DNA of 64,000 bases, taken from positions 186,001-250,000 of the forward strand of contig NZ_QJRL01000002.1 of NCBI RefSeq assembly GCF_003205205.1, read 5' to 3'. A program made the translations under genes and the position numbers. Below, piece after piece: positions 46,857 through 64,000 of the stretch. Origin of the DNA: Pseudomonas sp. LB-090624 (GTDB taxonomy: Bacteria > Pseudomonadota > Gammaproteobacteria > Pseudomonadales > Pseudomonadaceae). Within the stretch, counting starts at the first letter, position 1. Every line of letters begins with the position of its first letter. The notes under the pieces were generated by a model, which was given only the letters and a program-made list of their open reading frames with translations, was not told where the DNA came from and made no database searches.

Positions 46857-48482
46857 ATGCAGTTACGGAATTTGAAGATCGGCATTCGCGCTGCAAGCGT
46901 GTTCGCCCTGTTGGGCATCCTGGTCCTGTTCATGGGCTTGATCGCACTTTATGAAACCCGGCAGATGGACAAGGCCACGGATGAAATCCGGGTGACCTGG
47001 ATGCCGGCCGTAATAGCCCTGGGTGACATCAGCAGCAACCTCGGGCGCGCCCGCGCCGTCACCTTGCGTGCCGCCCTGGACGACAACCCCAGTGACCGCG
47101 TGCGCAACCTGCAGATGCTCGACGGTATAAATACCGAGCTGAATAATGCTCTGAAGAATTATGCCGACACGATCATCGCTGCCGATGACCGCGCCCTGTT
47201 CAATGCCTTCAGCGCTGCTCATCAGCACTATTTCGAATTACAGACCCGCGTGCTGCAAGACATCCAAGCCGGGCGTATGGACGACGCCAAGCAGCAGATC
47301 AGCGGCGCGCTGACTCAGCGCGCCGACAGCATGATGCAGGCCATGGCAGCGTTGATCGCGTATAACGGCACAGGCGCCGAACAAGCCTCGCAGCGCAGCA
47401 GCGACGTCGCTGACGAAGCGTTCACCGCGCTGGTCGCCGCACTGGTGGTGATCATGCTGGCCCTTGCCGCCATCGCCACCCTGCTCACCCGCAGTATCGT
47501 CGTGCCGCTGGCCGATGCGCTGGCGGTGGCCGAGCGCGTTGCGACCGGCGACCTGACCCGCGAGATACGGGTAACCGGTCGCGATGAGCCGGCCATGCTA
47601 TTGCGCGCCCTGAGCCGGATGCAGGGCAGCCTGCGCGATACCATTCGCCAGATCGCCGCGTCTTCCGACCAACTGGCCTCGGCCTCGGAAGAACTGCACA
47701 CCGTCACTGAAGACACCAGCCGCGGCCTGCATCAGCAGAGTGCAGAAATCGACCAGGCCGCCACGGCGGTGAACCAGATGACTGCGGCAGTCGAGGAAGT
47801 GGCGAACAACGCGGTCAGCACTGCTGATGCTTCCAAAGGCGCTGACCAGACCACCCGAGATGGCCGCGACCAAGTCAACCAGGCGCTGGCATCCATTCAG
47901 CATCTGGTAGCGGATGTGACCGGCACATCGGCCGAGATCGAACAACTGGCCAGCAACGCCAACGAGATCAGCCGGGTGCTGGACGTGATTGGAGCGATTG
48001 CCGGGCAGACCAACCTGCTGGCACTGAACGCCGCCATCGAGGCGGCAAGGGCCGGCGAGGCAGGACGTGGGTTTGCCGTGGTGGCTGACGAGGTACGCGC
48101 CCTCGCCCACCGTACCCAGCAATCGACGGCGGAGATCGAGCAGATGATTGCCGGTATCCAGAACGGCACCGAGCGGGCGGTGACGGCAATGCACAGCAGC
48201 CAGGGTCGCGCCACGGGTACGCTGGCAGTGGCGCAAAGCGCAGGGCAGGCGTTGGAGGTGATAGCCGAGGCCATCGCTTCGATCAACCAGCGCAACCTGG
48301 TGATTGCCAGTGCCTCGGAAGAGCAGGCGCAGGTCGCACGCGAGGTGGACCGGAACCTGGTGAATATTCGTGACTTGGCGACGCAAACGTCGGCGGGCGC
48401 GAACCAGACCAGTGCGGCGGCGCAGGATCTGTCGCGGTTGGCGGTGGACCTGAACGGGATGGTGGCGCAGTTCAAGGTTTGA
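46857..48482 (+). CDS. Methyl-accepting chemotaxis protein (4HB ligand domain)
   Basis: 541 residues. TM1 (~11-31), a periplasmic four-helix-bundle domain (~32-190) with [22 protein letters not shown]2 (~192-212), HAMP (~213-265) and a cytoplasmic signalling domain with the hairpin tip [18 protein letters not shown]. Gln/Glu-rich helices carry likely methylation sites. It senses an unknown ligand and drives chemotaxis through CheW/CheA. No che genes are adjacent. AAGGAG precedes the ATG. The nearby heterocycle cluster makes its substrate a conceivable ligand, but that is only positional. Confidence 0.93.
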
Positions 48483-48534: not shown

Positions 48535-49941
48535 TCAATCGTTGACGCTTACCACCCGCCCCGCCTTCTCGACAGCCTTGCCGCGCGTCGCCAGGCAGTA
48601 GTACAACGGCACGGTCACCAGCAAGCCGAACAGCCATGACAGGTCGGCCCCTTCGACAATGTTCGAGTACGGCCCCACATACAGCGAAGTATTGGCAAAC
48701 GGCAGCTGCACCAGGATGCCGCAGGCATAGGCGATGATCGCGTGGTGGTTGAAGCGGCCATAGATACCGCCGTCGGCGCTGAAGATCGACGCAATGTCGT
48801 ACTGGCCTTTCTTGATCAGGTAGAAGTCGATCAGGTTGATCGAAGCCCACGGCACCAGCACCAGCAGCAGCGCCAGGATCAGGCCGATGAAGTGGCTGAT
48901 GAAGTCCGCCGAGGCGTTCAGTGCCACCATCCCGCAGCCCAGCAGAATCACTGAAGCCAGGATCACCCGCACCTTGATGCTCGGCGTCCACTCGGCCATG
49001 AAGGTCTGGATCGCGGTCACGATCGACAGCACGGCGCCGTAGAGGTTGAGGGCGTTGTGGCTGATGATGTTGAGCAGGAACAGCACCATCAGGATCGGGC
49101 CCAGCCAGCCGGTGGCCTGCTTTACCGCATCCATTGCGTCGGTGCCTTCCGGCACGCACAGCACGGCCACCGTACCAAAGCTGAAGCACAGGATGGTACC
49201 CAGGGTGGCGCCGAAGTAAGTGGCCCAGAACGGCTTGGCAATGCCCACTTCACGGGGCAGATAGCGCGAGTAGTCGGAGGTGTACGGGGAGAAGCTGATC
49301 TGCCAGATCACACCCAGCGACACGGTGGCAATGAAGCCCGACAGGTTGAACGCGCCACGGCTGAAGAAGTCAGCCGGCAGATCCTGGACGAACATCATGA
49401 TGAAACCGGCAAGCAACGCCGAGCCCATCACCCAGGTACCGATGCGGTTGAGGATATGGATGAAGCGGTAGCCGATCACGCCAATAGCAGTCGCACTCAG
49501 CGCACCGATCACGATCGCACCGGGCATCGGCACGCTCGGCGCGATGCCGTGAATGGTCTTGCCTGCCAGGACGATATTGGAAATGAAGAAGCCGACATAG
49601 ATCAGCGCGGTGAAGAACACGATCAGCAAGGCACCGTAGCGGCCAAACTGGCCACGGCTCTGCACCATCTGCGGAATGCCCAGCTGCGGCCCCTGCGCAG
49701 AGGCCAGGGCGATGACCACACCCCCGACCAGATGGCCCAGTACGATGGCGATCAGGCCCCACAACAGGTTCAGGTGGAACACCTGGACCACCATGGCACC
49801 GGTCACGATAGGCAGTGGCGCAATGTTGGTACTGAACCAGAGGGTGAACAGGTCGCGCGCCTTCCCATGGCGCTCGGCAGGTGGAACGTAATCGACCGTG
49901 TGATTCTCGACAAACTGGTGTTGCGACGACGGTTGGGACAT
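48535..49941 (-). CDS. NCS1-family nucleobase/N-heterocycle permease
   Basis: 468 residues with 12 predicted helices. It is of the cytosine/purine/allantoin/hydantoin NCS1 family, with RDLFTLWFSTNIAPLPIVTG in TM1, SAQGPQLGIPQMVQSRGQFG (substrate site) and SFSPYTSDYSRYLPREV. It is a paralogue of the permease at 60612. It is divergent from the flavin reductase and carries a TGGTATTCCA operator-like word 79 bases upstream (50020-50029), so it is probably the importer of the substrate degraded by the 50258-56346 enzymes. Confidence 0.9.
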   Translation of the reverse strand: MSQPSSQHQFVENHTVDYVPPAERHGKARDLFTLWFSTNIAPLPIVTGAMVVQVFHLNLLWGLIAIVLGHLVGGVVIALASAQGPQLGIPQMVQSRGQFGRYGALLIVFFTALIYVGFFISNIVLAGKTIHGIAPSVPMPGAIVIGALSATAIGVIGYRFIHILNRIGTWVMGSALLAGFIMMFVQDLPADFFSRGAFNLSGFIATVSLGVIWQISFSPYTSDYSRYLPREVGIAKPFWATYFGATLGTILCFSFGTVAVLCVPEGTDAMDAVKQATGWLGPILMVLFLLNIISHNALNLYGAVLSIVTAIQTFMAEWTPSIKVRVILASVILLGCGMVALNASADFISHFIGLILALLLVLVPWASINLIDFYLIKKGQYDIASIFSADGGIYGRFNHHAIIAYACGILVQLPFANTSLYVGPYSNIVEGADLSWLFGLLVTVPLYYCLATRGKAVEKAGRVVSVND

Positions 49942-50019
49942 GGTTTTCAGCTCGAAAGGTCGTTTTTATCTTTGTAAGGAAACCGCATCAAGGCGGCCTC
50001 TCAGCTGCGGACCATATTA

Positions 50020-50029
50020 TGGTATTCCA
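50020..50029. promoter_or_regulatory. GntR/FCD operator-like site 1
   Basis: TGGTATTCCA in ATATTATGGTATTCCAAG, one mismatch from the palindrome TGGTATACCA. It lies 79 bases upstream of the NCS1 permease start on the minus strand. Confidence 0.6.
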
Positions 50030-50190
50030 AGCTTTTGACAACACTGATCCGCACGAAAAAACGGCCGCTGATCCGCTTCGCAAACCCCTGCGACAAACCG
50101 CCCCACTGCTCAAGGCCACGGTTTACGTGGCTTTGGGCCGTTCATCGCGAAAAAACAGGGATAAAAATTCTGCTTGCAAAATAGGTATTA

Positions 50191-50200
50191 CGGTATACCA
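50191..50200. promoter_or_regulatory. GntR/FCD operator-like site 2
   Basis: CGGTATACCA followed by TCAGACACAT, 58 bases before the flavin reductase start. The flanks match site 3 almost base for base over about 22 bp. Confidence 0.65.
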
Positions 50201-50257
50201 TCAGACACATCAACGATAAAAACCGCGGACCACCGCAGCCCTTTAGAGGTACACGAG

Positions 50258-50743
50258 ATGATCGACGCAACCGTCTACAAGAACGTCCTGGGCTCCTTCC
50301 CGTCCGGCGTTACCGTCATCACCACCCTGGACGACGACGGCTCGGTCGTCGGCCTGACCGCCAGCGCTTTCTCTTCCTTGTCGATGGACCCGCCGCTGGT
50401 GCTGTTCTGCCCCAACTACACCTCCGATTCCTACCCGGTACTGATCAAGCAGAAGCGCTTTGCCATTCACCTGCTGTCCGGTGAACAGCAGGCCGAAGCC
50501 TACGCGTTCGCCAAGAAGGGCAAGGACAAGGCCAGCGGCATCGAGTGGACCCTGAGCGAACTGGGCAACCCGATCCTGGCCGGCGCCACCGCCGTCATCG
50601 AATGCGAACTGTGGCGTGAATATGAAGGTGGCGACCACGCCATCATGGTCGGCAAGGTACACAACCTGATCGTCCCTGCCGAAGCGCCACGGCCGATGGT
50701 GTACTGCCGCGGCAAGATGGCCAGCCTGCCGGCCTTTGCCTGA
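50258..50743 (+). CDS. Flavin reductase (HpaC/RutF family), copy 1
   Basis: 161 residues of the NAD(P)H:FMN/FAD reductase fold. MGSFPSGVTV-type start (here LGSFPSGVTVITTLDDDG), GLTASAFSSLSMDPPLVLFC (flavin binding) and FAIHLLSGEQQ are typical. It would supply reduced flavin to the LLM monooxygenase 80 bases downstream, making a two-component system. A second paralogue at 55336, about two-thirds identical by eye, ends the neighbouring operon. The start at 50258 follows an AGAGGT ribosome site; the frame to 50174 runs through the operator. Confidence 0.92.
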   Translation: MIDATVYKNVLGSFPSGVTVITTLDDDGSVVGLTASAFSSLSMDPPLVLFCPNYTSDSYPVLIKQKRFAIHLLSGEQQAEAYAFAKKGKDKASGIEWTLSELGNPILAGATAVIECELWREYEGGDHAIMVGKVHNLIVPAEAPRPMVYCRGKMASLPAFA

Positions 50744-50823
50744 AGCCTGCACTAGGACGCAGCCCGCCCCCACACTGAAGCCCGCTTGACTGACGGGCAA
50801 CAACAAGCGTTGAGGAAAAACCC

Positions 50824-51864
50824 ATGAAATTTTCGTTGTTCGTGCACATGGAACGTTGGGATGAACAGGTCAGCCACCGCCAGCTGTTCGAAGACCTGAC
50901 CGAACTGACCCTGATGGCCGAAGACGGCGGTTTCAGCACCGTATGGATCGGCGAACACCACGCCATGGAATACACCATTTCGCCAAGCCCGATGCCGCTA
51001 CTGGCCTACCTGGCCGCACGCACCGAGAAGATCCGCCTGGGCGCCGGCACCATCATCGCGCCGTTCTGGAACCCGATCCGCGTGGCTGGCGAATGCGCCC
51101 TGCTCGACGTGATCAGCAACGGCCGCATGGAAGTGGGCCTGGCCCGTGGTGCCTACCAGTTCGAGTTCGACCGCATGGCAGGTGGCATGCCGGCCACCGA
51201 CGGCGGCAAGGCGCTGCGCGAGATGGTGCCCGTGGTGCGTAAGCTGTGGGAGGGCGACTACGCCCACGACGGCGAAGTCTACAAGTTCCCGACCTCCACC
51301 AGCGTACCGAAACCGTTCAACGCCACGCCGCCTATGTGGATCGCCGCCCGTGATCCGGACTCGCACAACTTTGCCGTTGCCAATGGCTGCAATGTCATGG
51401 TCACCCCGCTGATGAAGGGTGACGAAGAGGTGCTGGACCTCAAGAACAAGTTCCAGGCTGCCCTGGACAACAACCCGGACGTGCCGCGCCCGCAATTGAT
51501 GGTGCTGCGCCACACCCATGTGCACAGCCCGGCCGAACCGGAGGGCTGGAAGGTTGGCGCCCAGGCGATCTCGCGCTTCTACCGCACCTTCGATGCCTGG
51601 TTCGGCAACAAGACCACCCCGGTGAATGGCTTCCTGGAGCCGAGCCCGGAGTCCAAGTTCGCCGAAGTACCGGCGTTCCAGCTGGAGAACATCCGCAAGA
51701 ACACCATGATCGGCACGCCGGAAGAGATCATTGCGCGCATCAAGTACTACCAGGAGCTTGGCGTCGACGAGTTCAGCTTCTGGTGCGACAACAGTCTGCC
51801 CCACGCCGAGAAGAAGAAGTCGCTCGAGCTGTTCATCAAGGAAGTGGTGCCGGCGTTCGCCTGA
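50824..51864 (+). CDS. LLM-class flavin-dependent monooxygenase
   Basis: 346 residues of the bacterial luciferase-like TIM-barrel family. Visible hallmarks: VWIGEHHAMEYTISPSPM (EHH motif), AARTEKIRLGAGTIIAPFWN, HDPIRVAGE-type segment (here NPIRVAGECALLDVISNGR), and IGTPEEIIARIKYYQELG. These enzymes use FMNH2 from a partner reductase to oxidise or open substrates such as uracil (RutA), nitrilotriacetate, pyridine or trigonelline. With the reductase upstream and a terminator at 51895-51941, it forms a two-gene unit. The exact substrate is inferred only from context. Confidence 0.92.
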   Translation: MKFSLFVHMERWDEQVSHRQLFEDLTELTLMAEDGGFSTVWIGEHHAMEYTISPSPMPLLAYLAARTEKIRLGAGTIIAPFWNPIRVAGECALLDVISNGRMEVGLARGAYQFEFDRMAGGMPATDGGKALREMVPVVRKLWEGDYAHDGEVYKFPTSTSVPKPFNATPPMWIAARDPDSHNFAVANGCNVMVTPLMKGDEEVLDLKNKFQAALDNNPDVPRPQLMVLRHTHVHSPAEPEGWKVGAQAISRFYRTFDAWFGNKTTPVNGFLEPSPESKFAEVPAFQLENIRKNTMIGTPEEIIARIKYYQELGVDEFSFWCDNSLPHAEKKKSLELFIKEVVPAFA

Positions 51865-51894
51865 ATTCCCATTGCCTGAATCATTGCGGGACGC

Positions 51895-51941
51895 AGCCCG
51901 CTCCCGTGGGCCCTTGTGGCTCGCGTGAGCGGGCTTTTTTT
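51895..51941 (+). terminator. Rho-independent terminator after LLM monooxygenase
   Basis: AGCCCGCTC (51895-51903) pairs with GAGCGGGCT (51927-51935), followed by seven T residues. Confidence 0.85.
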
Positions 51942-51965
51942 GAGGGGTACGCCTTGGGTCTTGCG

Positions 51966-52208
51966 GTGTATTCGAAATCGAGCGCCGCCCGCGCGGCGCA
52001 TCGCGAGCTGCGCTCGCTCCTACGTTTGTTTCGGGCCAGTGATTCCTGTGGGATTTGCGCGCGAACGCCTTGGCGCATGGCGCGAAATCGCGTCGTACAA
52101 ACAAGGCGGTCGCGCGCGCCTGCAACAGGCGTTACTGGCCAAAAACAAACGTAGGAGCGAGCGCAGCTCGCGATGCGCCGCGCGGGCGGCGCTCGATTTC
52201 GAATACAC
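51966..52208. repeat. Long inverted repeat with 75-bp arms
   Basis: Left arm 51966-52040 (begins GTGTATTCGAAATCGAGCGC) and right arm 52134-52208 (ends in the reverse complement) match except for about two bases near the loop. The 93-bp centre is itself rich in CGCG/GCGC pairing. The arms contain CGCGAGCTGCGCTCGCTCC, a smaller hairpin of the kind seen in REP families. It is probably an oversized REPIN or a non-autonomous mobile element. Confidence 0.85.
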
Positions 52209-52295
52209 CACAAAAACTCAAGGCATACCCAACAGCCCCACCTTTCGTCCCCCCGCAAGAGAAATTTCCAGCCACCTCTTGCACAACAAATATTA

Positions 52296-52305
52296 TGGTA
52301 TACCA
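52296..52305. promoter_or_regulatory. GntR/FCD operator-like site 3
   Basis: Perfect palindrome TGGTATACCA in ATTATGGTATACCATCAGAC, 40 bases before the DUF1185 gene. The same word and flanks occur at site 2. Confidence 0.68.
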
Positions 52306-52345
52306 TCAGACAACAAGAGCTGATAACCCTCACCAGGAGCCATCC

Positions 52346-52942
52346 ATGAGTTTCGAAATCCGCAAGATCGTCACCTACTCCGAAGAGACCCGCATCGAAG
52401 GCGGCAAGGCCACCGACAAGCCGGTGACCATGGTCGGCCTGGCCGTCGTGATCAAGAACCCATGGGCCGGTCGCGGTTTCGTTGAAGATCTGAAGCCGGA
52501 AATCCGCGCCAACTGCTCGGAGCTGGGTGCACTGATGGTCGAGCGCCTGACTGCCGCCATTGGCGGTGCCGACAAGATCGAAGCCTACGGCAAGGCCGCG
52601 GTGGTCGGCGCCGACGGCGAAATCGAGCACGCCTCTGCGGTGATCCACACCCTGCGCTTCGGCAACCACTACCGTGAAGCGGTACAGGCCAAGAGCTACC
52701 TGAGCTTCACCAACAAGCGCGGCGGCCCAGGCACCTCGATCCAGATCCCAATGATGCAGAAGGACGATGAAGGCCTGCGTTCGCACTACATCACCCTGGA
52801 AATGCAGATCGAAGACGCCCCTCGCGCCGATGAAATCGTCGTGGTCCTGGGTGCTGCCGACGGTGGCCGTCTGCACCCACGTATCGGCAACCGCTACATC
52901 GACCTGGAAGAACTGGCTGCCGAAAAAGCCAACGCTCAATAA
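52346..52942 (+). CDS. DUF1185 (AA_synth) family protein
   Basis: 198 residues, soluble. Conserved stretches: EIRKIVTYSEETRIEGGK, AVVIKNPWAGRGFVEDLKPE, GKAAVVGADGEIEHASAVIH and GTSIQIPMMQKDD, all of the DUF1185 family, sometimes labelled amino acid synthesis protein without a proven reaction. It heads a four-gene operon (hydrolase, aldehyde dehydrogenase, flavin reductase). From memory, a conserved hypothetical protein assists the semialdehyde step in the Acinetobacter trigonelline pathway; whether this is its equivalent needs a direct comparison. CAGGAGCCATCC precedes the ATG. Confidence 0.85.
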   Translation: MSFEIRKIVTYSEETRIEGGKATDKPVTMVGLAVVIKNPWAGRGFVEDLKPEIRANCSELGALMVERLTAAIGGADKIEAYGKAAVVGADGEIEHASAVIHTLRFGNHYREAVQAKSYLSFTNKRGGPGTSIQIPMMQKDDEGLRSHYITLEMQIEDAPRADEIVVVLGAADGGRLHPRIGNRYIDLEELAAEKANAQ

Positions 52943-53010
52943 CAACAACCAAGACGGGCCGGGGCGTGGCGTGCTTACCCGCCGCGCCCGACCTTCAAGG
53001 AGCGCCCTCC

Positions 53011-53844
53011 ATGATTCAGCCTGTCGCTGAACGCACACCTGCCGGCACCAGCTACCTGTCCGTCGGCCAGGGCCAACCCGTGGTATTGATCCACGGCGTG
53101 GGCCTGAACAAGGAAATGTGGGGCGGTCAGTTCGTTGGCCTGGCCAACGACTACCGCGTCATTGCCTACGATATGCTCGGCCACGGCCAAAGCCGTGTAC
53201 CGGCCGCAGACACGCCGCTGGAGGGCTACGCCGACCAGCTCGCCGAACTGCTCGACCACCTGCAAATTGCCCAAGCCACCGTGATCGGTTTTTCCATGGG
53301 CGGCCTGGTCGCCCGCGCCTTTGCGCTCAACTACCCACAGCGCCTGGCCGCCTTGGTCGTGCTCAACAGCGTGTTCAACCGCAGCCCCGAGCAGAGTGCC
53401 GGCGTCATCGCCCGCGCCGCCCAGGCTGCAGAGCTAGGCCCTGACGCCAACGTCGATGCAGCGCTCGACCGCTGGTTCAGCCGTGAATACAAGGCTGCCA
53501 ACCCGGCGCAGGTCGCTGCCATCCGCCAGGTGCTGGCGAGCAACGACCCGCAGGGCTACCACACCACTTATTCGCTGTTCGCCACTCAGGACATGTACCG
53601 CGCAGGCGACCTGGGCAGTATCCAGGTGCCGACGCTGATCGCCACCGGCGAACTCGACTCGGGCTCCACCCCGGCCATGACCCGCCAGCTCGCCGCCAGC
53701 ATTCCTGGCGCACACAGTGTGGTCCTCGCCGAGCAACGGCATATGATGCCGGTGGAAGCACCGCGTGAAGTCAACAAGATGCTGCTGGACTTCCTCACCC
53801 AAGCCCGCACCCTCACCGAATCCGCCAAGGGGATTGTTGCATGA
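53011..53844 (+). CDS. Alpha/beta hydrolase (RutD-like)
   Basis: 277 residues. An alpha/beta hydrolase fold with oxyanion segment VVLIHGVGLNKEMWGGQF, nucleophile serine in VIGFSMGGLVARAFAL (~94) and a late histidine in EQRHMMPVEAPREV (~244); the acid is probably in ATGELDSGSTP. Its place between DUF1185 and aldehyde dehydrogenase suggests hydrolysis of an N-formyl enamide, carbamate or lactone released by ring opening. CAAGGAG precedes the ATG at 53011, and the stop overlaps the next start by 4 bases. Confidence 0.9.
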   Translation: MIQPVAERTPAGTSYLSVGQGQPVVLIHGVGLNKEMWGGQFVGLANDYRVIAYDMLGHGQSRVPAADTPLEGYADQLAELLDHLQIAQATVIGFSMGGLVARAFALNYPQRLAALVVLNSVFNRSPEQSAGVIARAAQAAELGPDANVDAALDRWFSREYKAANPAQVAAIRQVLASNDPQGYHTTYSLFATQDMYRAGDLGSIQVPTLIATGELDSGSTPAMTRQLAASIPGAHSVVLAEQRHMMPVEAPREVNKMLLDFLTQARTLTESAKGIVA

Positions 53845-55322
53845 CCCTCGTTCGTTTCCAGATGTGCATCGACGGCCAATGGCGCGATGCCCAGAGCGGC
53901 AAGACCTTCGACAGCCTCAACCCGGCCACTGCCCAGGCCTGGGCGCAACTGCCCGATGCCGACGAAGCCGATGTCGAGCTGGCCGTACAGGCCGCCCAGC
54001 GTGCCTTCGACAGCAAGGAATGGCGCAGCATCACTGCCACTGCACGCGGCAAGTTGCTGCGTCGCCTGGGTGACCTGATTGCCGAGAACAAGGAACACCT
54101 GGCCCAGCTGGAAAGCCGTGACAACGGCAAGCTGATCCGCGAAACCCGCGGCCAGGTCGGCTACCTGCCCGAGTTCTTCCACTACACCGCAGGCTTGGCC
54201 GACAAGCTCGAAGGCGGCACCCTGCCGCTGGACAAGCCCGACCTGTTCGCCTACACCGTGCACGAGCCGATCGGCGTGGTCGCCGGCATCATCCCGTGGA
54301 ACAGCCCGCTGTACCTCACGGCGATCAAACTGGCCCCGGCCCTGGCAGCCGGCAACACCATCGTACTGAAACCGTCCGAGCACGCCTCGGCGACCATCCT
54401 CGAACTGGCCCGGCTGGCCCTTGAAGCCGGTTTCCCGGCTGGCGTGGTCAACGTGGTCACCGGTTACGGGCCAAGCACCGGCGCGGCGCTGACTCGCCAC
54501 CCGCTGGTGCGCAAGATCGCCTTCACCGGCGGCGCGGCCACCGCCCGCCACGTGGTGCGCAGCAGTGCCGAAAACTTCGCCAAGCTGTCGCTGGAGCTGG
54601 GCGGCAAGTCGCCGAACATCATCTTTGCCGACGCCGATCTGGACAGCGCCATCAACGGCGCCGTGGCCGGCATCTATGCCGCCTCCGGGCAAAGCTGCGT
54701 GGCTGGTTCGCGCCTGCTGGTGCAGGACGAGATTTTTGACCAGTTCGTCGAGCGCCTGATCGCCCGCGCCAAGCGCATCCGCATCGGCAACCCGCAGGAC
54801 GACGCCAGCGAAATGGGCCCGATGGCCACGGCACAACAACTGGCCGTGGTCGAAGGCCTGGTCGCTGCGGCCAAGGCCGAGGGCGCGAAGCTGCACATGG
54901 GTGGCAAGCGTGCCGAGGTCGAAGGCGATGGCTGGTTCTACGAGCCGACCCTGTTCGAATGCGACAGCAATTCGATGACCATCATGCAGGAAGAAGTGTT
55001 CGGCCCGGTCGCTGCGGTCATCCGTTTCAAGACCGAGGAAGAAGCCCTGGAAATTGCCAACGACTCGCAGTTCGGCCTGGCTGCCGGCATCTGGACCCGC
55101 GACCTGGGCCGCGCCCACCGCCTGGCCCGTGACGTGCGTTCGGGGATCATCTGGGTCAACACCTACCGCGCCGTGTCGGCCATGGCACCGATCGGTGGCT
55201 TCAAGAACAGCGGCTACGGCCGTGAGAGCGGCATCGATTCGGTGCTGGCCTATACCGAGCTGAAGACCGTGTGGATCAACTTGTCCACCGCGCCGATGCC
55301 CGACCCGTTTGTGATGCGTTGA
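53841..55322 (+). CDS. NAD(P)-dependent aldehyde dehydrogenase
   Basis: 493 residues. Catalytic glutamate in LELGGKSPNIIFADADLD (~252) and nucleophile in ASGQSCVAGSRLLV (~285). Cofactor segments are GIIPWNSPLYLTAIKLAPAL and FTGGAATARHVV. It is translationally coupled (ATGA) to the hydrolase. In a ring-opening pathway it would oxidise a semialdehyde or hydroxylactone intermediate, such as succinic semialdehyde. It differs strongly from the PuuC/KauB-like enzyme at 22540. Confidence 0.92.
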   Translation: MTLVRFQMCIDGQWRDAQSGKTFDSLNPATAQAWAQLPDADEADVELAVQAAQRAFDSKEWRSITATARGKLLRRLGDLIAENKEHLAQLESRDNGKLIRETRGQVGYLPEFFHYTAGLADKLEGGTLPLDKPDLFAYTVHEPIGVVAGIIPWNSPLYLTAIKLAPALAAGNTIVLKPSEHASATILELARLALEAGFPAGVVNVVTGYGPSTGAALTRHPLVRKIAFTGGAATARHVVRSSAENFAKLSLELGGKSPNIIFADADLDSAINGAVAGIYAASGQSCVAGSRLLVQDEIFDQFVERLIARAKRIRIGNPQDDASEMGPMATAQQLAVVEGLVAAAKAEGAKLHMGGKRAEVEGDGWFYEPTLFECDSNSMTIMQEEVFGPVAAVIRFKTEEEALEIANDSQFGLAAGIWTRDLGRAHRLARDVRSGIIWVNTYRAVSAMAPIGGFKNSGYGRESGIDSVLAYTELKTVWINLSTAPMPDPFVMR

Positions 55323-55335
55323 GAGGTAGCACGAG

Positions 55336-55821
55336 ATGATCGAACCCGGCATCTACAAAGACGTGATGGGCTCCTTCCCGTCCGGCGTCACGGTTGTCAC
55401 CACCCTGGACGCCGACGGCGGCATCGTCGGCATCACCGCCAGCGCGTTCAGCGCGCTGTCGATCGACCCGGCACTGGTGCTGTTCTGTCCCAACTACGCC
55501 TCGGACACCTACCCGATCCTGCGCGACAGCAAGCAGTTTGCGATCCACCTGCTGTCTGCCGACCAGACCGCCGAGGCCTATGCCTTCGCCGGCAAGGGCA
55601 AGGACAAGGCCAAGGGTGTCGAGTGGCAGCTGAGCGAACTGGGCAACCCGCTGCTGACCAAGGCCACCGCGATCATCGAGTGCGAACTGTGGCGCGAGTA
55701 CGACGGCGGTGACCACGCGATCATCGTTGGCGCGGTGAAGAACCTGGTGCTGCCGGCCGAGCCGGTGACACCCATGGTCTACCACAAAGGCAAGCTGGGC
55801 GCCTTGCCGCCGTTGGGCTGA
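55336..55821 (+). CDS. Flavin reductase (HpaC/RutF family), copy 2
   Basis: 161 residues, the same length as copy 1 and alike over the whole sequence: MGSFPSGVTVVTTLDADGG, ITASAFSALSIDPALVLFC, and ECELWREYDGGDHAIIVG versus ECELWREYEGGDHAIMVG. Both copies could serve the single LLM monooxygenase, or this one may reduce flavin for another oxygenase. It follows the aldehyde dehydrogenase by 13 bases and ends the operon; a terminator follows. Confidence 0.92.
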   Translation: MIEPGIYKDVMGSFPSGVTVVTTLDADGGIVGITASAFSALSIDPALVLFCPNYASDTYPILRDSKQFAIHLLSADQTAEAYAFAGKGKDKAKGVEWQLSELGNPLLTKATAIIECELWREYDGGDHAIIVGAVKNLVLPAEPVTPMVYHKGKLGALPPLG

Positions 55822-55833
55822 GACACCTTGAGC

Positions 55834-55894
55834 ATCGGTGTTGGCTGTTCGCGAGTGAACCGGCGACAAAGCCAACACCGATAGTACTGTTTTT
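55834..55894 (+). terminator. Rho-independent terminator after flavin reductase copy 2
   Basis: ATCGGTGTTGGCT (55834-55846) pairs perfectly with AGCCAACACCGAT (55870-55882), followed by TTTTT at 55890-55894. Confidence 0.82.
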
Positions 55895-55956
55895 AGGGGG
55901 CCGCGCTATCGTCTCACCCTCGGTTGCGGCCCCTGTTTTATTCCGGAGTACTGCGC

Positions 55957-56346
55957 ATGAGCAATGAAAAGTACGAGAAAGGCCTGCAGATCCGTACCCA
56001 GGTGCTGGGCGAGGACTACGTCAACCGCTCGATCCAGAACGCCGACGCGTTCACCCAGCCGCTGCAAGAGCTGGTCACCGAATACTGCTGGGGCCATGTC
56101 TGGGGCCGCGAAGGCCTCTCGCTGAAGGAGCGCAGCATGATAAACTTGGCCATGATTTCCGCGCTCAACCGGCCCCACGAGCTCAAGCTGCACATTCGCG
56201 GCGCATTGCGCAATGGCCTGAGCCGTGAACAGATTCGCGAGATCCTGCTCCAGGTCGGCATTTATTGCGGCGTGCCCGCGGCGGTGGACAGTTTCCGCCT
56301 GGCCCGCGAAGCGTTCGCTGAAGCCGATGCGGAGTCAACCCGTTAA
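55957..56346 (+). CDS. Carboxymuconolactone decarboxylase family protein (PcaC-like)
   Basis: 129 residues. The PcaC-like segment is LQELVTEYCWGHVWGREGLS, LKERSMINLAMISALNRPHE, LKLHIRGALRNGLSREQIRE, with the His-Gly-Val/Trp pattern in place of the AhpD CxxC motif. A decarboxylase, lactonase or tautomerase-like step is possible. The start at 55957 (MSNEKYEKG) fits family members; the frame extends back to 55924. It lies after a terminator and so has its own promoter; no TGGTATACCA site was seen in front of it. Confidence 0.87.
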   Translation: MSNEKYEKGLQIRTQVLGEDYVNRSIQNADAFTQPLQELVTEYCWGHVWGREGLSLKERSMINLAMISALNRPHELKLHIRGALRNGLSREQIREILLQVGIYCGVPAAVDSFRLAREAFAEADAESTR

Positions 56347-56436
56347 CACCGGGCTGTTCGAACCCACGCAAGGAGCACCCAAGGTTCGTGGTGCTGTTGC
56401 GGTTGCGGCCGGGCAGCCTCTTTAAGAGCGCACTTG

Positions 56437-57189
56437 ATGAAACGCCAGCCACTCGACGACAGCTTCAAGGTCAACCGCAACCCCGTTACCCTGCGCGAAA
56501 TCGTGCTCGACAAGCTGCGCACCGCGATCATGAACTTCCATTTGCTGCCCGGCGACCGCCTGGTCGAGCGCGACCTTTGCGACCGCCTCGGCGTCAGCCG
56601 CACCTCGGTGCGTGAAGCGCTGCGGCACCTGGAGTCCGAAGGCCTGGTGGAATTCGCCGACGCCAAGGGGCCGCGGGTGGCCATCATCACCCTGGAAGAC
56701 GCCCGCGACATCTACGAGCTGCGCTGCGTGCTCGAAGGCCTGATCGTGCAGCTGTTCACCCTCAACGCCAAGGCCAAGGACATCCGCGCCCTTGAGCGCG
56801 CGCTGGAGGTGAACCGCGAGGCCCTGGAAGAGGGCGAGCTGCAACAGGTGCTGGATTCGGTGCAAGGCTTCTACGATGTGCTGCTGGAGGGTTCAGGCAA
56901 CCAGGTGGCTGCGCAACAGTTGCGCCAGTTGCAGGCACGCATCAGTTACTTGCGGGCCACTTCGGTGTCGCAAGAAAACCGCCGCGGCGCCAGCAACCGC
57001 GAAATGGAAAAAATCGTCGAAGCCATCAAGGGTGGCGACCCGCTGGTCGCGCACCAGGCTTCGGTCGATCATGTCCGCGCTGCCGCCAAGGTGGCCCTGG
57101 ACTACCTGCGCCAGAAGCAGGATGACAACGCCAAGGTGCGCGACATCGTCGAGCCCCTGGCCCTGAAGGAACCTCGTATAGGCCGCTGA
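56437..57189 (+). CDS. GntR-family (FCD) transcriptional regulator
   Basis: 250 residues. N-terminal GntR winged helix (15-80): LLPGDRLVERDLCDRLGVSR, TSVREALRHLESEGLVEF. A C-terminal FCD ligand domain follows (about 90-235), with DARDIYELRCVLEGLIVQL and histidines in HQASVDHVRAA that may bind a metal. FCD regulators bind TNGTNNNACNA-type operators; TGGTATACCA at 50191 and 52296 and a variant at 50020 fit this form. It is therefore the likely regulator of the NCS1/LLM/DUF1185 regulon. Two bases separate it from the Nudix gene. Confidence 0.92.
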   Translation: MKRQPLDDSFKVNRNPVTLREIVLDKLRTAIMNFHLLPGDRLVERDLCDRLGVSRTSVREALRHLESEGLVEFADAKGPRVAIITLEDARDIYELRCVLEGLIVQLFTLNAKAKDIRALERALEVNREALEEGELQQVLDSVQGFYDVLLEGSGNQVAAQQLRQLQARISYLRATSVSQENRRGASNREMEKIVEAIKGGDPLVAHQASVDHVRAAAKVALDYLRQKQDDNAKVRDIVEPLALKEPRIGR

Positions 57190-57191
57190 CC

Positions 57192-57755
57192 ATGCCCAAC
57201 GCCCCGCGCTACTGCCCGCACTGCACCACGGAACTGGCCCGGGGCGTTCCCACAGGCGATACCCACGAACGCCTGCACTGCACCGGCTGCGGTTACATCC
57301 ACTACATCAACCCGAAGCTCATCGCGGGCTGCATCATCGAGCGCGAGGGCAAGTACTTGCTGTGCCAGCGTGCCATCCCGCCGCGCCCCGGCACCTGGAC
57401 ATTGCCGGCCGGGTTCATGGAGGCCGGTGAAACCACCGAGCAGGCAGCGCTGCGCGAGGTCTGGGAAGAAAGCGGCGTGCGCGCCGACATCGTTTCGCCC
57501 TACTCGATCTTCAGCGTGCCGAAAATCAGCGAGGTGTACATCATCTTCCGCGCCATCGCCACTGAAGAGACCGGTCAGTATGGCCCGGAGACCCTGGCTT
57601 ACAAGTTCTTCGAACCGGATGAAATTCCTTGGGACGAGATCTATTACCCGGCGATCCGGCAGATTCTCGAGCGCTACATCCTGGAACGGCAGGCCGGGGT
57701 TTACGGCATTTACATGGGTAATGACGACACCGGCAAAGTGCACTTCATGCGCTAG
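57192..57755 (+). CDS. Nudix hydrolase with N-terminal zinc ribbon (NudC/YjaD-like)
   Basis: 187 residues. A zinc ribbon, CPHC...CTGC (positions ~8-34), precedes a complete Nudix box, GFMEAGETTEQAALREVWEE followed by SGV (~77-99). Members hydrolyse NADH, ADP-ribose or capped-RNA-like compounds with Mg2+. It is 2 bases downstream of the GntR gene and must share its transcript, although a link to the catabolic pathway is not obvious; a role in nicotinamide nucleotide turnover would be consistent with a pyridine-type substrate. Confidence 0.9.
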   Translation: MPNAPRYCPHCTTELARGVPTGDTHERLHCTGCGYIHYINPKLIAGCIIEREGKYLLCQRAIPPRPGTWTLPAGFMEAGETTEQAALREVWEESGVRADIVSPYSIFSVPKISEVYIIFRAIATEETGQYGPETLAYKFFEPDEIPWDEIYYPAIRQILERYILERQAGVYGIYMGNDDTGKVHFMR

Positions 57756-60436: not shown

Positions 60437-60611
60437 ACTGTCAGCCGCTTAAGCTTTTGTCAGCCTTAGGTTTTTTAACGCTTATGGGTACATATTTACT
60501 AATTTCCCCTTACCCCAGCGCCCCGCATCATCGCTCCAACAAGAACGCGTCGCCCTTCGCCGGCACGCCCCCGGGCAGCTCCCTATGCCCTACCTTGCCT
60601 TGGAGTCAGTC

Positions 60612-62088: not shown

Positions 62089-63390
62089 TCAGAGGTTGTA
62101 CGCCCGCTCATTGTGCTCCGCCAGGTCCAGCCCCTGCTCTTCCTCTTCTCGGCTGGCCCGCAGCCCCACGGTCAGCTTGATGGCCCCGAGAATCGCCCAG
62201 CTCACCACGAAGCAATAGACAACGGTAAACGCCACGCCCTTGAGCTGTATCAGCGCCTGCCCGAGCGGCGAAGCCCCTTCCACATATCCGCCCAGCGACG
62301 GCGCGGCAAACACACCGGTCAACACGGCCCCGATCATCCCGCCAACACCATGCAGCCCGAATACATCGAGGCTGTCGTCATACCCCAGCGCCTGCTTGAG
62401 CCGGGTCACGGCAAAGAAGCAGATCGCCCCAGTCAACAAGCCGATTACTATCGCGCCCAACGGCCCGACAAAAGCACAGGCTGGTGTGATTCCGACCAGT
62501 CCGGCCAGCGCACCGGAAGCCGCACCCAGCGCTGTCGGTCGACCATGCATCACCTGTTCGGTCAACAACCAGCCGACAATCCCGGCACAGGCCGCCACCA
62601 TGGTCGCCAACATCACCACCCCTGCCCCTTGGTTGGCCGCAAGCCCTGAACCGACGTTGAAGCCGAACCAGCCCACCCACAATAACCCTGCCCCTACCAG
62701 GGTGAAACCGAGGTTGTGCGGCGGCATCGCCACCTGCGGGTAACCCTTGCGCTTACCCAGCATCAACGCCGCCGCCAGGGCTGCCACGCCAGAGTTGATG
62801 TGCACCGCCGTACCGCCAGCAAAGTCCAGGACGCCCCAGTTGACCATCAATGCCCCCGGCCCGCCCCATACCATGTGGGCGATTGGCGCATACACCAGCA
62901 CGAACCACGCCGCCATGAACAGCAGCGAAGCGCTGAACTTCATGCGTTCGGCAAACCCACCGGCAATCAGCGCCGGCGTGATGATCGCGAAGGTCAGCTG
63001 GAACACCGCGAACACGCCTTCGGGGATGGTGCCGACCAGGCTGTCATGGCCGATGTCGAGCATCAGGGCCTTGTCCAGCCCGCCGATGAAGCTGTTGACG
63101 GTGATCTGCCCTTCGACCATGCCGCTGGTAGCGACCACCAGGCTGTAGCCGAACAGCACCCAGAGAATGCCGATGACACCGGCCACGGCGAACAGCTGGG
63201 TAAATACCGAAAGAAAGTTCTTCGCCCGCACCATGCCGCCATAGAACAGCGCAAGGCCAGGGATGCACATCATCAACACGAACATCGCGGCGCAGATCAT
63301 CCAGGCGGTATTGCCGGTGTCCAGAGTGGGTTCGGCGGCGTAGGCCAATGGCGTCAACGCGAGCAGCACAACAGCAAGGGTATGCTTCAT
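62089..63390 (-). CDS. amtB: Ammonium transporter AmtB
   Basis: 433 residues. A signal-like first helix (MKHTLAVVLLALTPLAYAAE) and 11 further helices. Typical motifs: PGLALFYGGMVRAKNFLSVF, MAAWFVLVYAPIAHMVWG, DFAGGTAVHINSGVAALAAA and the twin-histidine region ending in VFGLHGVGGMIGAVLTGVFA. It carries ammonium across the inner membrane and may also pass methylammonium. It lies 52 bases behind a glutamate-synthase-like gene in the same direction, and no glnK is beside it in this window, which is unusual for amtB and suggests a special-purpose copy. Confidence 0.93.
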   Translation of the reverse strand: MKHTLAVVLLALTPLAYAAEPTLDTGNTAWMICAAMFVLMMCIPGLALFYGGMVRAKNFLSVFTQLFAVAGVIGILWVLFGYSLVVATSGMVEGQITVNSFIGGLDKALMLDIGHDSLVGTIPEGVFAVFQLTFAIITPALIAGGFAERMKFSASLLFMAAWFVLVYAPIAHMVWGGPGALMVNWGVLDFAGGTAVHINSGVAALAAALMLGKRKGYPQVAMPPHNLGFTLVGAGLLWVGWFGFNVGSGLAANQGAGVVMLATMVAACAGIVGWLLTEQVMHGRPTALGAASGALAGLVGITPACAFVGPLGAIVIGLLTGAICFFAVTRLKQALGYDDSLDVFGLHGVGGMIGAVLTGVFAAPSLGGYVEGASPLGQALIQLKGVAFTVVYCFVVSWAILGAIKLTVGLRASREEEEQGLDLAEHNERAYNL

Positions 63391-63442
63391 GGGTCACTCC
63401 TGTGCGAATGGGGGGCTGCTTCGCAGTCCCCCGAGGGTCAAC

Positions 63443-64000
63443 TCAATACTGCGCCTGGCCCGGCACCCACGTGGTCCCTGCCAACGGCACCCGGGCCATG
63501 GCCGCCGCCTCGACGGTCAACGCCACCAAGTCCTCCGGGTCAAGGTTGTGCAGATGCGACTTGCCACACGCCCGCGCCATGGTCTGCGCCTCCAGCACCA
63601 GTACCCGCAAGTAGTTGGCCAGCCGCCGCCCGGCTTCCTCCGGGTTCAGCCGCTTGGCCAGCTCCGGGTCCTGAGTGGTAATCCCGGCCGGGTCGCGACC
63701 GTTCTGCCAGTCGTCATAGAACCCTGCCGCCGAACCGATCTTCTTCAGCTCGCTGTCCAGCCGCGGGTGGTTGTCGCCCAGGGCAATCAGCGCCGCCGTG
63801 CCAATCGCCACCGCATCCGCCCCCAAGGCCATGGCCTTGGCCACATCGGCACCGTTACGGATACCCCCCGAGACGATCAGCTGCACCTTGCGGTGCATAC
63901 CCATTTCCTGCAGCGCCTGCACCGCCTGGGGAATAGCCGGCAAGATCGGGATGCCAACGTGCTCGATGAACACTTCCTGGGTTGCAGCCGTACCACCCTG
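63443..64000 (-). CDS. FMN-binding glutamate synthase-like protein, GlxD/MgsC type, C-terminal part (5' end outside window)
   Basis: The last ~185 codons of a glutamate synthase (GltS) FMN-domain protein; the frame is open through base 64000. Motifs: QGGTAATQEVFIEHVGIPIL, QLIVSGGIRNGADVAKAMAL (FMN phosphate site) and GADAVAIGTAALIALG. The end is short, without the beta-helix GXGXG domain of full-length GltB. That layout is found in stand-alone GlxD/MgsC subunits that act with GlxB/GlxC-like partners, including N-methylglutamate synthase. It sits directly upstream of amtB, so a role in ammonium or methylamine assimilation is likely. Confidence 0.85.
   Translation of the reverse strand, partial: QGGTAATQEVFIEHVGIPILPAIPQAVQALQEMGMHRKVQLIVSGGIRNGADVAKAMALGADAVAIGTAALIALGDNHPRLDSELKKIGSAAGFYDDWQNGRDPAGITTQDPELAKRLNPEEAGRRLANYLRVLVLEAQTMARACGKSHLHNLDPEDLVALTVEAAAMARVPLAGTTWVPGQAQY

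What the first reader, a model, noticed from the sequence alone, without database searches (positions are those of the whole stretch)
48535..57189. Candidate N-heterocycle ring-opening pathway, trigonelline- or pyridine-like
The set of an NCS1 permease, flavin reductase plus LLM monooxygenase, DUF1185 protein, alpha/beta hydrolase, aldehyde dehydrogenase, second flavin reductase, PcaC-like protein and GntR regulator matches known two-component flavin-dependent ring-cleavage pathways. Established comparison, from memory: trigonelline degradation in Acinetobacter baylyi uses a two-component flavin oxygenase, a dehydrogenase, a hydrolase, a semialdehyde dehydrogenase and a conserved hypothetical protein. 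RutA/RutF of the uracil pathway uses the same LLM-reductase pairing. Here the permease is NCS1-type, a PcaC-like protein is added, and only one aldehyde dehydrogenase is present, so this may be a variant with a different substrate.
Basis: partly seen in the sequence, partly recalled or inferred. Interest (0 to 1): 0.85.

Follow-up and report, generated by a model that had tools for sequence, protein, structure and literature searches.

The report
Trigonelline ring-opening regulon in Pseudomonas
A Pseudomonas gene set whose three units share one palindromic DNA motif is predicted to break open the ring of the plant compound trigonelline, or of a close N-methylated pyridine, and likely feeds the pieces into central metabolism; relatives of its key oxygenase are in 112 of 199 sampled Pseudomonas genomes.

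Summary
They are best read as the Pseudomonas form of the trigonelline-degradation (tgn) system of Acinetobacter. A record annotated tgnA-tgnB-tgnC (Acinetobacter sp. PK01 plasmid) holds the same kinds of DUF1185 protein, hydrolase, NCS1 permease, GntR regulator and PcaC-like protein, so the permease and the PcaC-like protein are not departures. Identities to it: oxygenase 48%, aldehyde dehydrogenase 53% (to TgnC), DUF1185 56%, permease 55%, hydrolase 35%, PcaC-like 78%. The palindrome ATGGTATACCAT lies (exact or one mismatch) before both operons here, before a riboflavin-synthesis/ABC-transporter operon 125 kb away, and before DUF1185 in clusters of Acinetobacter, Pantoea, Leisingera and Mesorhizobium. 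What differs is the reductase: TgnA is a flavin reductase fused to a degenerate NUDIX-like domain; here there are two short reductases and a free NUDIX protein with an intact NUDIX box. The oxygenase forms its own clade, with 95 shared invariant columns and 8 fixed differences from the TgnB side. The substrate is inferred, not shown.

The parts
48535..49941 (-). NCS1 permease (likely uptake of the N-heterocycle)
   Evidence: Transp_cyt_pur PF02133 1.2e-46; 55-56% to the NCS1 permeases in the Acinetobacter and Pantoea tgn-type clusters; a site within one mismatch in the 400 nt upstream (a gap shared with the reductase operon) in 61 of 65 Pseudomonas loci
50019..50030 (.). degenerate operator-like site on the permease side (ATGGTATTCCAA, 2 mismatches)
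50190..50201 (.). operator-like site (ACGGTATACCAT, 1 mismatch), before the reductase-oxygenase operon
   Evidence: within one mismatch before this gene in 67 of 74 loci against 12 of 370 control windows
50258..50743 (+). short flavin reductase A (161 aa)
   Evidence: Flavin_Reduct 6.4e-44; 38% to the N-terminal domain of TgnA
50824..51864 (+). LLM oxygenase, TgnB-type, predicted ring-opening enzyme
   Evidence: Bac_luciferase 1.5e-55; 48% to annotated TgnB over full length; own clade 100/99; 95 shared invariant columns, 8 fixed differences
51918..51935 (+). terminator-like hairpin with T run after the oxygenase
   Evidence: a consensus match; 16 such in the region against 8.9 in shuffles
52295..52306 (.). 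operator-like palindrome ATGGTATACCAT (exact)
   Evidence: exact before DUF1185 in 51 of 51 Pseudomonas loci; exact or near before DUF1185 in tgn-type clusters of other genera
52346..52942 (+). DUF1185 / AA_synth protein (TgnF type)
   Evidence: PF06684 7.7e-72; 56% to the Acinetobacter and Pantoea ones; TgnF named as homologue of a DUF1185 protein in PMC7913881 (passage)
53011..53844 (+). alpha/beta hydrolase (TgnD position), predicted to hydrolyse the ring-opened formamide
   Evidence: 35-38% to the hydrolases in the Acinetobacter and Pantoea clusters; GxSxG, Asp and His aligned
53841..55322 (+). aldehyde dehydrogenase (TgnC type)
   Evidence: Aldedh 2.8e-175; 53% to annotated TgnC, 37% to the Acinetobacter SSADH; LELGGKS and GQSC motifs as in TgnC
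55336..55821 (+). short flavin reductase B (161 aa, 71% to A)
55957..56346 (+). PcaC-like (CMD) protein, predicted decarboxylase of a pathway intermediate
   Evidence: PF02627; 78% to the CMD protein of the Acinetobacter tgn-annotated cluster but 42% to the CMD beside the PcaD-like gene at G000:C11
56434..57189 (+). GntR-FCD regulator, presumed to bind the palindrome
   Evidence: 36-38% to the GntR of the Acinetobacter and Pantoea clusters, which carry the same palindrome
57192..57755 (+). free-standing NUDIX hydrolase, homologous to the C-terminal half of TgnA-type reductases; predicted flavin (FAD to FMN) role
   Evidence: NUDIX + Zn_ribbon_Nudix; E 7e-16 to a B. multivorans TgnA-type C-terminal half, 2.5e-10 to TgnA; intact NUDIX box
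62089..64000 (-). start of a neighbouring block (ammonium transporter, glxD cut by the window end, then glxC, glxB, glnT outside) of the kind used for methylamine assimilation; link to the pathway inferred
   Evidence: found beside the cluster in 4 of 13 further Pseudomonas stretches

Best explanation
These genes are predicted to form the Pseudomonas version of the trigonelline (tgn) ring-opening pathway, with a likely order of uptake by the NCS1 permease, oxidative opening of the N-methylpyridine ring by the LLM oxygenase with reduced FMN, oxidation of the aldehyde, hydrolysis and decarboxylation to succinate semialdehyde, methylamine, formate and CO2. Shown: the gene families, their homology and shared content with a record annotated tgnA-B-C, and the shared palindrome before the units. 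Inferred: (1) the two short reductases supply FMNH2, replacing the reductase half of TgnA; (2) the NUDIX protein, homologous to the other half of TgnA, likely cleaves FAD to FMN, and RibBA at the distant operon likely raises flavin supply; (3) the aldehyde dehydrogenase acts as TgnC; (4) the hydrolase acts as TgnD; (5) the PcaC-like protein would catalyse the decarboxylation step; (6) the DUF1185 protein acts as TgnF and an SSADH encoded elsewhere acts as TgnE; (7) the GntR protein controls all three units through ATGGTATACCAT, likely as a repressor released by the substrate or a product; (8) methylamine is likely assimilated by the nearby amt-glxDCB-glnT block.
For: Same kinds of genes as the Acinetobacter sp. 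PK01 plasmid cluster annotated tgnA, tgnB, tgnC, with identities 48/53/56/55/35/78% for oxygenase/ALDH/DUF1185/permease/hydrolase/CMD. NCBI names Acinetobacter proteins 90-92% identical to that TgnB 'flavin-dependent trigonelline monooxygenase oxygenase component'. Same palindrome: exact before DUF1185 in 51 of 51 Pseudomonas loci, exact in the GntR|DUF1185 gaps of the Acinetobacter, Pantoea, Leisingera and Mesorhizobium clusters, one mismatch in S. meliloti; exact TGGTATACCA in 15 of 24 chosen loci. In the whole genome it occurs at 5 places with <=1 mismatch: two here, one exact before RibBA-ABC; before RibBA <=1 mismatch in 24 of 25 loci. TgnA-NUDIX homology. Oxygenase: 95 shared invariant columns against 8 mostly conservative fixed differences between 17 TgnB-side and 16 window-side sequences; the third type differs at 17 of the 41 shared columns that the outgroup lacks. 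Oxygenase and DUF1185 go together in 114 of 114 genomes. SSADH-type genes beside related oxygenases in Arthrobacter, G131 and Pseudomonas G789 fit succinate semialdehyde as product; BCCT betaine-type transporters beside three related oxygenases, and a purU-folD-soxB-soxD-soxA-type block beside tgn-type genes in Acinetobacter, G125 and this genome's RibBA-ABC locus, fit an N-methylated substrate.
Against: The oxygenase is only 48% identical to TgnB and sits in its own clade; the hydrolase is only 35%; both could mean another ring substituent. No SSADH in the local cluster. The Arthrobacter member of the same oxygenase clade lacks the palindrome, has no CMD gene in the stretch seen, and its two-domain reductase shows no match to the NUDIX protein. 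One Paraburkholderia cluster has no site in the gap scanned (L100). The transporter differs between lineages (NCS1, ABC, BCCT). The glnT block is adjacent in only 4 of 13 further stretches and bears no copy of the palindrome at <=1 mismatch. The pathway chemistry is recalled from Perchat et al. 2018, which is not held.
Confidence: 0.66

Rival explanations
1. A tgn-type pathway with the same logic and products but a different N-heterocycle, for example homarine (N-methylpicolinate), N-methylpyridinium or a nicotinamide derivative. The oxygenase clade diverged with its substrate.
For: Separate clade, 48% identity to TgnB and 35% for the hydrolase, one non-conservative fixed difference M192/Q.
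Against: Only 8 fixed differences against 95 shared invariant columns; same palindrome, CMD 78%. No match above 53% to TgnB in 199 Pseudomonas genomes, so under this rival those genomes would hold no trigonelline enzyme of the TgnB side.
Confidence: 0.2
2. A pyridine pathway of the Arthrobacter PyrA-E kind: C2-C3 cleavage of unsubstituted pyridine, aldehyde oxidation, deformylation, SSADH.
For: An Arthrobacter plasmid carries a 77% identical oxygenase with SSADH, riboflavin kinase, reductase, hydrolase and ALDH; the pathway is recalled from Casaite et al. 2020, not read.
Against: That record is not shown to be the pyr cluster, and the p2MP accession tried is not held; the window's palindrome and CMD link it to tgn instead; presence in 112 of 199 Pseudomonas genomes fits a common natural compound better.
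Confidence: 0.1
3. A RutA-F type pyrimidine pathway.
For: LLM plus flavin reductase plus alpha/beta hydrolase; DUF1185 has a chorismate-mutase-like fold (PMC2954203, passages).
Against: RutF 61.7 and 65.2 bits against 254.75, RutD 91.9 against 238.5; no RutA model among the 25 of 31 families shown for the oxygenase; no isochorismatase-type family among the ten proteins scanned.
Confidence: 0.02
4. An aromatic beta-ketoadipate branch, with the PcaC-like and PcaD-like proteins acting on lactones.
For: PcaC model 154.1 bits against cut-off 155.7; PcaD model 180.6 against 255.85.
Against: A PcaD-like and a PcaC-like gene lie side by side at G000:C11:227338-228463; the window CMD is 78% to the CMD of the Acinetobacter tgn-annotated cluster.
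Confidence: 0.02

Closest known systems
Trigonelline degradation cluster tgnA-F of Acinetobacter (seen here on Acinetobacter sp. PK01 plasmid NZ_CP094644.1)
   Same: Oxygenase, reductase, TgnC-type ALDH, hydrolase, DUF1185, NCS1 permease, GntR, CMD; same palindrome before DUF1185
   Different: Two short reductases and a free NUDIX with an intact motif in place of the fused TgnA; no local SSADH; RibBA and ABC transporter in a separate operon with the same palindrome; oxygenase in another clade (48%)
S. meliloti pSymA cluster between noeB and nifT
   Same: DUF1185, hydrolase, oxygenase (50%), ALDH; palindrome with one mismatch. Genes essential for trigonelline catabolism were mapped to pSym by Goldmann et al. 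1991 (seen only as a reference-list title in PMC6297676); that they are these genes is not shown
   Different: Fused reductase, ABC transporter, a further ALDH-type gene (37%) after it, no CMD recognised in the stretch
Arthrobacter dokdonellae plasmid pDCT5 cluster
   Same: Oxygenase 77%, hydrolase, ALDH, NCS1-type permease, GntR, DUF1185, a NUDIX-domain protein
   Different: Two DUF1185 genes, tautomerase, riboflavin kinase, SSADH; no palindrome at <=1 mismatch; NCS1 only 25%, NUDIX not alignable to the window's at 1e-5
Rut pyrimidine pathway
   Same: LLM-reductase pairing, alpha/beta hydrolase
   Different: Fails RutD and RutF cut-offs, no RutB-type gene among the proteins scanned

Membership tests
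Trigonelline (tgn) degradation system | LLM oxygenase of the TgnB family | tested here: met
   48% over full length to annotated TgnB, 95 shared invariant columns; but a separate clade
Trigonelline (tgn) degradation system | Dedicated flavin reductase component | tested here: met
   Two reductases, 38% to the TgnA reductase domain; the fused TgnA architecture itself is absent
Trigonelline (tgn) degradation system | TgnC-type aldehyde dehydrogenase | tested here: met
   53% to TgnC against 37% to SSADH
Trigonelline (tgn) degradation system | TgnD-type hydrolase | tested here: inconclusive
   Same neighbours and fold family, catalytic residues aligned, but only 35-38%
Trigonelline (tgn) degradation system | TgnE succinate-semialdehyde dehydrogenase | tested here: inconclusive
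   None in the local cluster; GabD-type over cut-off elsewhere in the genome; within the cluster of Pseudomonas G789
Trigonelline (tgn) degradation system | TgnF (DUF1185) protein | tested here: met
   PF06684, 56%; that TgnF is of this family comes from a passage of PMC7913881
Trigonelline (tgn) degradation system | Turnover of trigonelline | not testable with these tools
   needs biochemistry or growth tests
Arthrobacter pyridine (Pyr) pathway | Homology to PyrA-PyrE | not testable with these tools
   the accession tried for p2MP is not held
Rut pyrimidine pathway | RutD and RutF at curated cut-off | tested here: not met
Rut pyrimidine pathway | RutB isochorismatase-type hydrolase in the cluster | tested here: not met
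   no such family among the ten proteins scanned
Beta-ketoadipate pathway (PcaC/PcaD) | PcaD and PcaC models at cut-off | tested here: not met
   180.6 of 255.85 and 154.1 of 155.7 bits (the second only just below); an adjacent PcaD-like/PcaC-like pair is at G000:C11

The most novel reading that the evidence does not exclude
Ring opening of N-methylpyridines comes with its own FMN-supply module: the NUDIX protein (free here, fused and degenerate in TgnA) makes FMN from FAD, RibBA is co-regulated through the same operator, and the PcaC-like protein catalyses a decarboxylation that the known in vitro scheme (recalled) gave to no enzyme of its own. One operator, ATGGTATACCAT, then unites this module from rhizobia to Pseudomonas and makes trigonelline use a trait of more than half of the sampled Pseudomonas species.
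Probability: 0.35. Interest if true: 0.68.

Novelty: new variant of a known kind. Interest (0 to 1): 0.52.

Why it matters
If true, a large share of Pseudomonas species can use trigonelline, a plant compound, which bears on life around roots and gives a sharp, testable substrate for many genes now named only 'LLM class flavin-dependent oxidoreductase'. The shared palindrome lets anyone find the full pathway in a genome even where its genes are scattered. The reductase-NUDIX link suggests a role for a NUDIX protein in feeding a two-component monooxygenase, and gives the PcaC-like and DUF1185 proteins a defined chemical context.

Tried and rejected
Rut and beta-ketoadipate readings were tested on curated cut-offs and dropped. 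The NCS1 permease and PcaC-like gene were dropped as marks of a variant after the Acinetobacter record was read. The second NCS1 permease (60585-62024) and the sensor kinase (57858-60041) were left out: no copy of the palindrome at <=2 mismatches near them; the NCS1b row is, by its positions, a cross-hit to the first permease and is not used. The 2-mismatch match at 55774 lies inside the second reductase gene and is taken as chance. I looked for Acinetobacter genomes by 16S in 293 and 369 genomes: best identity 94% over a short piece and 91% or less over the main matches, with 104 of 293 matching, pattern in 0 of 369; the plasmid collection supplied the cluster instead. Two genomes with only the third oxygenase type (G699, G771) are not counted in the 112; two of the 112 are partial matches (G701, G735). 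L106, L107 and L109 were left out of the invariant-column count. No structure was predicted. Paper searches made; among the rows shown (lists capped, some from thousands of papers) none was on trigonelline genes of Pseudomonas. Perchat et al. 2018 is not held. Papers seen: PMC7913881, PMC2954203, PMC8269262, PMC9151330, PMC11354265, PMC9385208, PMC6297676, all as passages only; the rest as search listings.

Full report
What is there. The window lies in a Pseudomonas, by its nearest oxygenase loci one of the P. putida group: loci at 100-94% bear names such as P. putida, P. monteilii and P. plecoglossicida (the first, at 100%, is labelled Pantoea sp. Ap-967). All nine genes of the finding are confirmed, and a NUDIX gene follows the regulator directly (57192-57755). 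There are two likely transcription units: reductase A and oxygenase, ended by a terminator-like hairpin at 51918-51935, and DUF1185-hydrolase-ALDH-reductase B-CMD-GntR-NUDIX. The permease is divergent from the first. The ten-gene order is the same in 50 of the 80 loci.

The nearest annotated system. tblastn of the DUF1185 protein against plasmids led to Acinetobacter sp. PK01, whose record names tgnA, tgnB and tgnC and has, around them, DUF1330, GntR, DUF1185, an alpha/beta hydrolase, an NCS1 'cytosine permease', a porin-like protein, SSADH and a CMD-family protein. Identities of the window proteins to it are 48% (oxygenase), 53% (ALDH to TgnC; 37% to the SSADH), 56% (DUF1185), 55% (NCS1), 35% (hydrolase), 36% (GntR), 38% (reductase domain) and 78% (CMD). 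Acinetobacter proteins 90-92% identical to this TgnB carry the NCBI name 'flavin-dependent trigonelline monooxygenase oxygenase component', and four relatives of the window oxygenase at 75-79% bear a like name from JGI; such names rest on homology. The reaction scheme (ring opening to an N-methylformamido hydroxybutyrolactone, oxidation, hydrolysis to CO2, methylamine, formate and succinate semialdehyde, SSADH assisted by a conserved protein) is recalled from Perchat et al. 2018, not read; the TgnC product name agrees with it, and PMC7913881 (passage read) states that TgnF is homologous to a DUF1185 protein and stimulates TgnE.

The operator. The palindrome ATGGTATACCAT is exact at 52295, with one mismatch at 50190 and two at 50019; the window holds 4 matches at <=2 mismatches against 0.67 (sd 0.89) in shuffles, 1 of 100 shuffles reaching 4. 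Over the Pseudomonas loci it is exact upstream of DUF1185 in 51 of 51 and within one mismatch upstream of reductase A in 67 of 74, against 10 of 255 and 12 of 370 control windows; a site stands before the oxygenase gene in 13 of 80, among them loci where the oxygenase is parted from the reductase. These loci are close kin, so distant clusters matter more: it is exact between GntR and DUF1185 in Acinetobacter, Pantoea, Leisingera and Mesorhizobium; its inner ten bases are exact before DUF1185 in Gemmobacter, B. multivorans and G125; S. meliloti has it with one mismatch; and it stands at one mismatch before the Acinetobacter SSADH-CMD pair. The gaps scanned in Arthrobacter, Paraburkholderia L100 and third-type L158 had none. 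Of 24 chosen loci scanned whole, 15 hold an exact TGGTATACCA; Arthrobacter, G281 and the three third-type loci hold none at <=1 mismatch. In the window's own genome there are five places at <=1 mismatch, and none for the reversed control. Two are here; one, exact, lies 125 kb away between a DUF1330 gene and RibBA followed by an ABC transporter of the type found in the rhizobial and Burkholderia clusters (85% and 61/58/55/47%). At the other two, on C44 and C50, no pathway gene was recognised. Upstream of RibBA the site is within one mismatch in 24 of 25 loci. In some other Pseudomonas (P. syringae GR12-2 L079, G706) these units lie in one stretch.

The reductase and the NUDIX protein. TgnA-type reductases are about 310 aa; Pfam sees only the reductase domain in TgnA, but the C-terminal halves match the window NUDIX protein (E 7e-16 and 1.7e-12 for two B. 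multivorans reductases, 5e-11 S. meliloti, 2.5e-10 Acinetobacter, 6e-8 Pantoea; the Arthrobacter reductase gave no match). They lack the NUDIX catalytic motif, which is intact in the window protein (GFMEAGETTEQAALREVWEESG). So one lineage holds the two parts fused, the other holds two short reductases (71% to each other) and a free NUDIX; the related G197 and G131 clusters also have a free NUDIX. A flavin role for it is inference, helped by RibBA in the regulon and by a riboflavin kinase next to a NUDIX gene in the Arthrobacter cluster.

Is the oxygenase a TgnB? In the tree, the window's clade (Pseudomonas, actinobacteria, Nitrincola) has support 100/99, apart from Acinetobacter TgnB with Burkholderia and Xanthomonas kin (99/98); long outgroup branches leave the deep order unsure. 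Across 17 TgnB-side and 16 window-side sequences (L106, L107 and L109 left out) 95 columns are invariant and identical and 8 are fixed but different, mostly conservative (Y/F, A/T, L/M, L/I, F/Y, G/A, S/T, M/Q); a third type (three sequences) departs at 17 of the 41 shared columns that the two outgroup sequences lack. Among 199 Pseudomonas genomes 114 match TgnB at E <= 1e-60: 112 at 48-53% (two of them partial), and four genomes hold a third type at 41-42%, two of them besides the first. All 114 also hold a DUF1185 gene; 2 further genomes hold it alone, one of these as a fragment. I read this as one function kept by the genus, but a shifted substrate is not excluded.

Hints on the substrate. 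Three related gammaproteobacterial clusters place a BCCT betaine-type transporter beside the oxygenase. SSADH-type genes stand in the clusters of Acinetobacter, Arthrobacter, G131 and Pseudomonas G789 (73% to the Acinetobacter one). A purU-folD-soxB-soxD-soxA-type block lies beside the tgn genes of Acinetobacter, beside the related G125 cluster and beside the RibBA-ABC locus here (56-88% to the Acinetobacter proteins); the SoxB-like proteins score below the curated cut-off for that family (452.6, 453 and 479.4 of 529.45), so their substrate is open. Just past the second NCS1 permease lies amt-glxD-glxC-glxB-glnT, of the kind known (recalled) from methylamine assimilation, with GlnT over its cut-off; it is adjacent in 4 of 13 further stretches, and glnT and amt genes are on the PK01 plasmid too. 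All this fits a substrate that carries an N-methyl group and ends as succinate semialdehyde plus methylamine, which is what trigonelline would give.

What remains open. I saw no assay of an enzyme of this clade. The hydrolase is the least conserved step (35%). PyrA could not be compared. The PcaC-like protein's reaction, the NUDIX substrate and the GntR effector are predictions.

Noticed in passing
window 62089-64000 (-), continuing outside: Ammonium transporter and glxD, then glxC, glxB, glnT outside the window: a methylamine-assimilation type block beside the second NCS1 permease.
   Followed up: partly
window 51961-52213: A 112-nt inverted repeat (89% complementary arms, 29-nt loop) between the two operons; may be a dispersed intergenic element.
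   Followed up: no
window 46857-48482: A chemoreceptor with a four-helix-bundle sensor domain stands next to the permease here and directly before it in 37 of 80 loci; a dCache chemoreceptor stands inside the cluster of Pseudomonas G789 (L161). Possibly taxis to the substrate.
   Followed up: partly
L158, L159, L160 (Pseudomonas G699, G703, G771): A third oxygenase type (44-45% to the Arthrobacter one) with its own SSADH-type gene, ABC transporter, hydrolase, ALDH, reductase and DUF1185, CMD in two of the three, and no palindrome; it co-occurs with the window type in two genomes (G703, G781), so it may serve another ring.
   Followed up: partly
L173 (G000:C55:215-219 kb): A second PcaC-like gene (59% to the window one) with a GntR gene (41%) and a distant hydrolase: perhaps another catabolic cluster.
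   Followed up: no
window 60585-62024: A second NCS1 permease, 62% identical to the first, without the palindrome.
   Followed up: no
L101 (S. meliloti pSymA): The S. meliloti relative lies between noeB and nifT in the symbiotic region.
   Followed up: no
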